From contig JALWZH010000134.1 in assembly GCA_027002815.1 (NCBI GenBank), positions 1 through 40,449 on the forward strand: DNA of 40,449 nucleotides, in the 5' to 3' direction. The position numbers and the translations under genes were made by a program. A model generated the notes under the pieces. The model worked only from the letters and a program-made list of their open reading frames with translations, searched no databases and was not told the origin of the DNA. Within the stretch, counting starts at the first letter, position 1. Each line of letters starts with the position of its first letter. The stretch comes from Thermoproteales archaeon (GTDB taxonomy: Archaea; Thermoproteota; Thermoprotei; Thermoproteales; Thermoproteaceae). Positions 3,872 to 30,271 of this stretch are shown here, piece by piece.

Positions 3872-4732
3872 TCATAGTAGGTGGGACCCATCGCACTTGG
3901 CCACACCATCATCCAGCCCCTCAAGGCCCTCACGGCAGGTAACGAAACGAAGCCCATACCTCTCGGCCGTCTCGCGTATCAGGCCCATAAGCTCCCTACG
4001 TAGGCGTTTCGGCGCGTAGCGCTGCCCATGGAAAAACTCTCCCTCCTCCCAGTAGATCCTCCTAAGCTCCTTACCGTATTCCGGAAACGAGCCCAAGAGC
4101 CTCTTGAAGTTGTCCGGCTTGGCCTTATACGTGCTGGCCACAACATGGTCGGCTCCCGCCTCCGCGGCCGCCCTTATCACCTCCTCGACGCGTTTATGGT
4201 CGGAGTTTACGTGTGGCACCACAGGATCCAGTCTCACGCCTGTAGGCACGCCGCCACTCGCAATCATTCTAAGTGCCCGTAGCCTCGCCTCAGGCGGGGG
4301 CGCGCCGGGCTCCAACCTCTTATATATGGGTCCAAGCGTGGTCACCGTCATCTGTACGACCGTTTTCCCCCTTCTAATTATGTCCAAGTCCCTCACAACT
4401 AGGGGCGACTTGGTGGTTATCTGTACCCTGTATCCCCTTTCCACTAGTACACGTAGCACCTCACGCGTCAATTTCAGTCTCCCCTCTGGATGCGTGTACG
4501 GATCGCTACTGTTAGAGAGCGATATTATGCTGCCACGCGGCACGGACTCCAGGTCGCGTATCACTTGACGTATGAGCCTATCCTTGGGCCTGGGATTGAA
4601 TGGGTCCCTGATATACGACGTTATGTAGCAATAGGTACACGCGTGGGCACAACCTGTGTAGGGGTTCAAACCGAACTTTTCCGGGCACGTACAGAGGGGG
4701 TTTCTCCAAGGGTCAAATGGACGAATGTACAT
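3872..4732 (-). CDS. Radical SAM protein, SplB-like (COG1533)
   Basis: A predicted radical SAM enzyme of 286 residues. The cluster-binding cysteines sit in GCAHACTYCY (C28, C32, C35 of this start), a CxxxCxxC spacing. LSNSSDPYTHPE and QITTKSPLVVRDLD follow in the order seen in the SplB/'DNA repair photolyase' group of COG1533. The true reaction of most archaeal members is unknown, and spore photoproduct repair should not be assumed. ATG 4732 fits a TATA box at 4754-4762, 26 nt upstream. The in-frame ATG at 4753 would abut the box and is rejected. Monocistronic. Confidence 0.82.
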   Translation of the reverse strand: MYIRPFDPWRNPLCTCPEKFGLNPYTGCAHACTYCYITSYIRDPFNPRPKDRLIRQVIRDLESVPRGSIISLSNSSDPYTHPEGRLKLTREVLRVLVERGYRVQITTKSPLVVRDLDIIRRGKTVVQMTVTTLGPIYKRLEPGAPPPEARLRALRMIASGGVPTGVRLDPVVPHVNSDHKRVEEVIRAAAEAGADHVVASTYKAKPDNFKRLLGSFPEYGKELRRIYWEEGEFFHGQRYAPKRLRRELMGLIRETAERYGLRFVTCREGLEGLDDGVAKCDGSHLL

Positions 4733-4753
4733 ATATGTCCTTAAGGAATCCAT

Positions 4754-4839: not shown

Positions 4840-5577
4840 TTATGGCCGGGGCAACAGCTGCATGAAGAGCTCTCTGAGAAGCGGAACCTTGCTCTCCTTG
4901 CCCAGCCGCACCAATATGTTCCTGGCGAGTCCCCAACACGCATTGATGTCCCTGTCCACCGATATATTGCATCTACCGCAACGCACGCGTCTCCCCTCTT
5001 TCTCCATCTTGCCGCCGCATATCATGCACGTGTCGCTTGTGAACGTAACGTGAAGTTCCACGAAGTACTGCCTGGCATGATCCTCAAACAATCCGCGTAT
5101 TGGGTCGACCGTAAGGACGTGGATGGGGACGTCCACTATAAAGATGTTCATGCCGGGCCTAGGCTTAAACGTTGGGCGTAGGCTGGCCTCGACCCCCTTA
5201 GATAAGAGCTGGGCGTAGTCCCCCACCTTGAAGATCCTGTACACTGTGCGGCGCTCGTTAACGTCATATGCGTGTATGTAGAGCGGGTCAGCGGTAGTGG
5301 CCTCTCGGAGTAGTGCGGCCTCATTCCTGCCCAGCAGCCTAACCACTACGTGGTCCCCATCCAAGAGCAACTCGGCCCTCTCAAACCCGAACGTCTCGGC
5401 ATTGCCGTATGTTAGGCGCCAGGATTTCTTTAGACATACAGGCCCCATATCGTCGAAGATGCCTATGGCGTCCTCGATTATCCTTACATGGGTCTCCACG
5501 TCCACAACGCCGTAGTCCCCGCCGAGCAGACGTCTGATCCTCCCCACGTCGCATCCACGGAACCTGAACGTCATCAT
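4840..5577 (-). CDS. TnpB/OrfB-type zinc-ribbon protein, probable nuclease-dead relic or domesticated form
   Basis: A 245-residue protein. Its C-terminal quarter carries the IS605 OrfB/TnpB zinc ribbon: TSDTCMICGG, then RCGRCNISVDRDINACWGLARN. This has two CxxC pairs followed by the DRDxNA motif, whose Asp is the third catalytic residue of the TnpB RuvC domain. The preceding strand, ARQYFVELHVTF, also fits the TnpB path into the ribbon. No GIDxG RuvC-I motif and no clear RuvC-II glutamate can be seen in the first 180 residues, and the protein is about 150-200 residues shorter than a working TnpB. No TnpA transposase lies nearby. Its ATGA overlaps the stop of the upstream small ORF. A DNA- or RNA-binding role is possible but unproven. 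Confidence 0.6.
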   Translation of the reverse strand: MMTFRFRGCDVGRIRRLLGGDYGVVDVETHVRIIEDAIGIFDDMGPVCLKKSWRLTYGNAETFGFERAELLLDGDHVVVRLLGRNEAALLREATTADPLYIHAYDVNERRTVYRIFKVGDYAQLLSKGVEASLRPTFKPRPGMNIFIVDVPIHVLTVDPIRGLFEDHARQYFVELHVTFTSDTCMICGGKMEKEGRRVRCGRCNISVDRDINACWGLARNILVRLGKESKVPLLRELFMQLLPRP

Positions 5578-5858
5578 TTGAACCCACGTGTGGGGCTAAG
5601 CCGGTTGACCGATCTCATGCGTTGACGCCCGCCATTCCCCCGGTCCGCCATGCCTAAATGTACGATGTCCCAGGGACCCCTTTCGAAACCATAGTCGATC
5701 ATCGCTGGGCCCAACATGCTCTTGCCAGAGCCTAGGGGCACGCTTATAGGTACCGCGGAACGCCCGTGAGCCGCGACACGGCCGAGAAGAGCCATGCAGG
5801 TGTGTACACCCATGTGATCCACACGCAGTTTTGTTTTATGCTTATTCCTCGTAGCCAC
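5574..5858 (-). CDS. Small unknown ORF coupled to the TnpB-like gene
   Basis: A frame of 94 codons from GTG 5858, ending in a TGA that overlaps the ATG of the TnpB-like gene (ATGATG, 4 nt). The product is basic at its ends, has a glycine-rich PLGSGKS stretch in the middle that loosely resembles a nucleotide-binding loop, and has no recognised domain. The bidirectional AAAATTTT box shared with rio1 lies 29-30 nt upstream. The coupling and promoter favour a real gene. The low sequence complexity and lack of recognisable relatives argue against. A different ATG at 5863 opens only a 28-codon frame. Confidence 0.4.
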   Translation of the reverse strand: MATRNKHKTKLRVDHMGVHTCMALLGRVAAHGRSAVPISVPLGSGKSMLGPAMIDYGFERGPWDIVHLGMADRGNGGRQRMRSVNRLSPTRGFK

Positions 5859-30179: not shown

Positions 30180-30271
30180 TGGTGGACCGGCCGGGATTTG
30201 AACCCGGGACCACCCGCGTTCTCGGGCCTTCCCTGCAAGGCGGGCATTCTTCCGGGCTGAACTACCGGCCC
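30180..30271 (-). tRNA. tRNA-Ala(UGC) with a 15-nt intron and encoded CCA
   Basis: The acceptor stem GGGCCGG pairs with CCGGTCC and contains the G3-U70 pair that marks alanine tRNA. The D-arm GTTC/GAAT, the anticodon stem CCCGC/GCGGG and the T-arm CCGGG-TTCAAAT-CCCGG all form. The anticodon TGC is at 30237-30235. The intron, GGGAAGGCCCGAGAA (30233-30219), sits between positions 37 and 38, the canonical archaeal site. A73 (30183) is followed by a genomic CCA (30182-30180). Confidence 0.95.

What the first reader, a model, noticed from the sequence alone, without database searches (positions are those of the whole stretch)
4840..5577. TnpB zinc ribbon and DRDxNA motif kept, RuvC core apparently gone
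The C-terminus is clearly TnpB-like, but the first 180 residues show no GIDxG and no obvious RuvC-II Glu, the protein is short, and there is no TnpA or IS end nearby. The frame is otherwise intact and coupled to a small ORF, which is unusual for a mere IS scar. It may be a domesticated, non-cutting TnpB relative used for regulation.
Basis: partly seen in the sequence, partly recalled or inferred. Interest (0 to 1): 0.6.

Follow-up and report, generated by a model that had tools for sequence, protein, structure and literature searches.

The report
Tiny domesticated TnpB-derived archaeal gene
A hot-spring archaeon and nearly all sequenced members of its family keep one 245-residue descendant of a transposon nuclease (TnpB) as an ordinary, strongly conserved host gene; its nuclease core is shrunken rather than gone, but nobody yet knows whether it cuts DNA or RNA or only binds it.

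Summary
The gene is real: minus strand 5577-4840, 245 aa, with a TnpB/Cas12f zinc ribbon (Pfam E=1.2e-7) and DRDINA. It is not an IS scar. A full-length copy stands in 18 of 19 genomes of the family (41-81% identity; the missing genome is 73% complete) and in none of the other genomes searched in the phylum. dN/dS is 0.06-0.11, like its housekeeping neighbours. The genome holds no Y1 TnpA and no other TnpB was found in it. The "coupled" small ORF (5574-5858) is not conserved.

"RuvC core gone" is not supported. The closest relatives are a divergent multi-copy TnpB-like clade of the same class, with DxN at RuvC-I and Asp instead of Glu at RuvC-II. Against it D105, D149 and D210 fall on RuvC-I, -II and -III, in order; all are invariant in 18 orthologues. 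Missing is room for REC, most of WED and the RuvC helices that hold omega-RNA; no conserved RNA signal was found. I read it as a miniaturised, domesticated, probably guide-free RuvC/zinc-ribbon host protein with an Asp-Asp-Asp site. Whether it cuts is open. The RuvC-I/II assignment rests on weak but reproducible profile matches; structure prediction failed.

The parts
4840..5577 (-). TnpB-derived mini-RuvC/zinc-ribbon gene, 245 aa (P0001)
5386..5577 (-). N-terminal part, residues 1-64, no recognisable domain; carries invariant KSWRxTY (51-57)
5329..5385 (-). residues 65-83, predicted strand pair just before RuvC-I, in the place of the last WED hairpin of TnpB (inference)
   Evidence: low-confidence model
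5227..5286 (-). RuvC-I-like segment, residues 98-117 (PLYIHAYDVNERRTVYRIFK), D105 at 5263-5265
   Evidence: 0 of 200 column shuffles reach the score; D105 invariant; not significant against canonical TnpB, though the best hit lands on GIDLG
5125..5151 (-). RuvC-II-like segment, residues 143-151 (MNIFIVDVP), D149 at 5131-5133, Asp where canonical TnpB has Glu
   Evidence: whole-profile match E=9.2e-15; segment alone: 1 of 200 shuffles reach the score
4957..5046 (-). TNB zinc ribbon, residues 178-207, CxxC...CxxC (C184, C187, C200, C203)
   Evidence: all four Cys invariant
4906..4956 (-). RuvC-III, residues 208-224 (DRDINACWGLARNILVR), D210 at 4948-4950
5056..5058 (-). E174, invariant Glu on the strand before the zinc ribbon; alternative metal ligand
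3872..4753 (-). neighbour: radical SAM protein (spore-photoproduct-lyase-like), 86 nt downstream; its homologue lies within about 5 kb of the gene in most relatives

Best explanation
A TnpB-like transposon protein related to a divergent archaeal clade (RuvC-I DxN, RuvC-II Asp) was captured once in the ancestor of this family and fixed as a host gene. It lost REC, most of WED and the long helices between RuvC-I and RuvC-II, leaving a minimal RNase H-like RuvC fold with its zinc ribbon. It probably works without a guide RNA: the zinc ribbon and RuvC surface bind a nucleic-acid structure, and D105, D149 and D210 hold divalent metal at the active site, with cleavage somewhat more likely than pure binding. 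Shown: conservation, purifying selection, zinc ribbon and RuvC-III, relationship to the clade. Statistically supported: RuvC-I and RuvC-II. Inferred: loss of guide RNA, catalysis, and a role in genome or RNA upkeep.
For: One full-length orthologue in 18 of 19 family genomes. dN/dS 0.06-0.11, neighbours 0.03-0.09. Profile match to the divergent clade: prob 98.4, E=9.2e-15, residues 141-241, D149 on the clade's RuvC-II Asp; clade against canonical TnpB puts that Asp on the canonical Glu. RuvC-I: the best hit of the N-terminal part alone is PLYIHAYDVN to PFEIIAVDIN, 0 of 200 shuffles reach it. Of 17 Asp only four are invariant (105, 149, 182, 210), three being those predicted. Tree: family plus clade apart from canonical TnpB at 100/100. 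RuvC-I to RuvC-II spacing is 44 residues against 87 in ISDra2 TnpB (D191 to E278), whose intervening RuvC residues bind omega-RNA (PMC10097598).
Against: RuvC-I and RuvC-II matches are short. RuvC-I against canonical TnpB is not above chance, and canonical TnpB gives another register for residues 130-150. AlphaFold models have pLDDT 39-41 and no PDB match. The one precedent read for Asp in place of the RuvC-II Glu, Cas12m2 (His-Asp-Asp), does not cleave target dsDNA (PMC10442227).
Confidence: 0.58

Rival explanations
1. Domesticated but nuclease-dead: the Asp-Asp-Asp site holds metal and nucleic acid without cutting, and the protein acts as a binding or regulatory factor.
For: Asp for Glu at RuvC-II; Cas12m2 (His-Asp-Asp) binds one Mg ion and silences without cleaving. 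TldR shows that TnpB is repeatedly turned into dead repressors (PMC13418256).
Against: All three acids are invariant in 18 orthologues under strong selection; the related multi-copy clade keeps the same Asp. TldR keeps guide RNA and DNA binding, for which this protein lacks the parts.
Confidence: 0.25
2. Only the TnpB C-terminus (zinc ribbon plus RuvC-III helix) was captured and fused to an unrelated domain of about 170 residues; there is no RuvC fold.
For: Library searches see only the TNB part; RuvC-I/II matches are short, and canonical TnpB gives no significant N-terminal match.
Against: RuvC-I and RuvC-II motifs of the divergent clade are found in order and at invariant Asp; no other family matches the first 150 residues convincingly.
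Confidence: 0.12
3. Still an RNA-guided TnpB-type protein using a short RNA encoded elsewhere.
For: Zinc ribbon and RuvC remain; guides in trans cannot be excluded from sequence.
Against: No REC, little WED, no long RuvC helices; no 3' constraint at fourfold sites; different genes overlap the stop codon in relatives; no Rfam RNA there.
Confidence: 0.04
4. Decaying IS remnant kept by chance.
For: Short; no TnpA nearby.
Against: Intact in 18 genomes, dN/dS 0.06-0.11, partly shared neighbourhood.
Confidence: 0.01

Closest known systems
TnpB of IS200/IS605 and IS607 (ISDra2 TnpB, 408 aa)
   Same: CxxC...CxxC TNB zinc ribbon and RDxNA RuvC-III; RuvC-I Asp probably in place
   Different: 245 aa; no GIDxG; RuvC-II Asp instead of Glu; no room for REC, most of WED or the omega-RNA-binding RuvC helices; no element, no TnpA, single copy, vertically kept
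Divergent TnpB-like clade of the same archaeal class (L087, L089, L100, L128, L020 and others; alignment A3)
   Same: RuvC-I DxN, RuvC-II [VIL]xxDxP, TNB, RuvC-III RD; closest by profile and tree
   Different: 373 aa or more in full-length members, multi-copy in some genomes, with a long part before RuvC-I that is lost here
TldR (TnpB-like nuclease-dead repressors)
   Same: TnpB taken over by the host
   Different: TldR keeps guide RNA and DNA binding and has an inactivated RuvC; here the acids are kept and the guide-binding parts are lost
Cas12m2 (type V-M, His-Asp-Asp site)
   Same: Asp at the RuvC-II position
   Different: 596 aa, crRNA-guided, His at RuvC-I

Membership tests
TnpB (RNA-guided, IS200/IS605 or IS607) | TNB zinc ribbon CxxC...CxxC with RuvC-III (D)RDxNA | tested here: met
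TnpB (RNA-guided, IS200/IS605 or IS607) | RuvC-I Asp (GIDxG) | tested here: inconclusive
   D105 in HAxDVNE matches the DxN of the divergent clade, not significant against canonical TnpB
TnpB (RNA-guided, IS200/IS605 or IS607) | RuvC-II Glu | tested here: not met
   Asp149 at the aligned position in all 18
TnpB (RNA-guided, IS200/IS605 or IS607) | REC and WED domains, about 400 aa; passes the TnpB model cut-off | tested here: not met
   245 aa, 20.4 bits against cut-off 100 for NF040570
TnpB (RNA-guided, IS200/IS605 or IS607) | omega-RNA at the 3' end | tested here: inconclusive
   no constraint at fourfold sites, different genes overlap the stop codon in relatives, which speaks against it; expression not testable here
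TnpB (RNA-guided, IS200/IS605 or IS607) | lies in a mobile element, with TnpA in the genome | tested here: not met
TldR | RuvC acids lost | tested here: inconclusive
   three Asp kept, RuvC-II non-canonical
TldR | guide RNA and linked target gene | not testable with these tools
   no RNA data; no conserved 3' RNA signal
Domesticated host gene | orthologous single copy, purifying selection, stable neighbourhood | tested here: met

The most novel reading that the evidence does not exclude
A TnpB descendant that dropped the guide-RNA machinery and became a family-wide, guide-free RuvC/zinc-ribbon nuclease of about 245 residues with an Asp-Asp-Asp site, serving genome or RNA upkeep in a family of hot-spring archaea.
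Probability: 0.35. Interest if true: 0.68.

Novelty: new variant of a known kind. Interest (0 to 1): 0.5.

Why it matters
The cited cases of TnpB taken over by hosts (Cas12, TldR) stay RNA-guided. A long-kept TnpB descendant that loses the guide-binding parts but keeps the active-site acids would show another route of exaptation, give one of the smallest RuvC/TNB cores for biochemistry, and test whether an Asp-Asp-Asp RuvC can cut.

Tried and rejected
I did not submit the 16 further orthologues, because they came from the genome search, which that rule does not list. Viral contigs hold no relatives. PDB sequence search: best hit E=0.065, not significant. The idea that the small upstream ORF is a remnant of the KaiC-like ATPase that precedes the gene in another genus: no similarity. 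The idea that E174 replaces the RuvC-II Glu: kept open, since it is invariant in the family but only common in the related clade. Two key papers (Altae-Tran 2023, Wiegand 2024) are not held.

Full report
What is there. The gene lies on the minus strand, 5577 to 4840, 245 aa. Pfam sees one domain above its cut-off, the TnpB/Cas12f zinc ribbon (TNB), at residues 173-215, E=1.2e-7. The curated TnpB model gives 20.4 bits against a cut-off of 100. The first 150 residues match no family convincingly.

It is a host gene. A search of 41 related genomes found one full-length copy in 18 of 19 genomes of the window's family, at 41-81% identity and without internal stops; the one without is 73% complete. 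Outside the family, 81 genomes of the class and 300 drawn from the phylum gave only TNB-length or C-terminal matches. dN/dS by Nei-Gojobori is 0.06-0.11 between close pairs and 0.11 for the window against its genus mate (dS 1.06), in the range of neighbouring housekeeping genes, 0.03-0.09. The surroundings are partly shared: eIF1A, a radical SAM protein, a KaiC-like ATPase (directly upstream, 12-29 nt, same strand, in one genus) and a phosphoesterase (directly downstream, overlapping or nearly so, in several genomes of another) recur within 5 kb. The genome has no Y1 transposase, and its only TnpB-model match has E=1.8e-4, of the size this gene itself gives.

The small ORF. ORF 5574-5858 has no domain and no counterpart in relatives. 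In the genus mate the intergenic DNA aligns with frame-breaking gaps, and the ORF does not resemble the KaiC-like ATPase. It is probably not a gene.

Is the RuvC core gone? The closest relatives are not canonical TnpBs but a divergent clade in the same class (alignment A3), with RuvC-I DxN, RuvC-II [VIL]xxDxP (Asp invariant), the zinc ribbon and RuvC-III RD. Profile comparison of the 18 orthologues (A1) with this clade gives probability 98.4, E=9.2e-15 over residues 141-241, aligning NIFIVDVP with the clade's RuvC-II. Much of that score comes from the zinc ribbon, so I tested the parts. Residues 110-180 alone still hit the RuvC-II Asp; 1 of 200 column shuffles reaches that score. Residues 1-142 alone hit the RuvC-I block at PLYIHAYDVN; 0 of 200 shuffles reach it, and 0 of 150 for residues 1-180. 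The clade compared with canonical TnpB puts its Asp on the canonical RuvC-II Glu. Of the 17 Asp in the protein only four are invariant, and three of them are D105, D149 and D210. A tree of the RuvC-II to RuvC-III segment separates family plus clade from canonical TnpB at 100/100; it is short, with long branches, and does not show from which member of the clade the family arose.

Limits. Against canonical TnpB the N-terminal match is not above chance, though its best position is again RuvC-I GIDLG, and canonical TnpB suggests another register for residues 130-150. Both structure predictions failed (pLDDT 39 and 41), because only one orthologue could be submitted; their strands (99-105, 110-115, 143-149) and helix (211-224) fit the expected order but carry no weight alone.

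How it may work. In ISDra2 TnpB the WED domain is residues 1-12 and 117-176, REC 13-116, RuvC 185-326 and 360-375, with catalytic D191 and E278 (PMC10097598, PMC8612924); omega-RNA is held by WED and by RuvC residues such as R231, R232, R238 and K263, between RuvC-I and RuvC-II. Here about 97 residues precede RuvC-I and only 44 separate D105 from D149, so REC, most of WED and those helices have no room. Fourfold-degenerate sites are as variable at the 3' end as elsewhere, in relatives different genes abut or overlap the stop codon, and Rfam finds only a tRNA in the window. A guide RNA is therefore unlikely, though not excluded. An Asp-Asp-Asp site may or may not cut: Cas12m2 with His-Asp-Asp binds one Mg ion and does not cleave dsDNA (PMC10442227), while atypical RuvC motifs in TnpB are not assumed dead (PMC10278001). 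I favour a guide-free nucleic-acid enzyme, with a binding-only protein as the main rival.

Noticed in passing
L087, L089, L092, L100, L103, L107, L108, L109, L126-L128, L020 (alignment A3): A divergent TnpB-like clade in the same archaeal class with Asp instead of Glu at RuvC-II, multi-copy in some genomes (35 matches in G072); curated TnpB models hardly see it.
   Followed up: partly
L106:1465-2205: A 247-aa open frame of the same clade lacking most of the part before RuvC-I: a possible parallel case of shrinkage, or a truncated copy.
   Followed up: no
L026, L029, L032, L034 around the orthologue: A KaiC-like ATPase gene ends 12-29 nt upstream of the orthologue on the same strand, a possible operon; it is absent from this window.
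   Followed up: partly
window 3872-4753 (-): Radical SAM protein with weak similarity to spore photoproduct lyase; its homologue lies near the gene in most relatives.
   Followed up: partly
window 4843-5577 (-), residues 178-222, against PADLOC model PDLC01039: A model named Csx1 matches this zinc ribbon (E=2.8e-6); the model may contain a TnpB-like C-terminus.
   Followed up: no
window 30180-30271 (-): tRNA-Cys spanning 92 nt, perhaps with a short intron.
   Followed up: no
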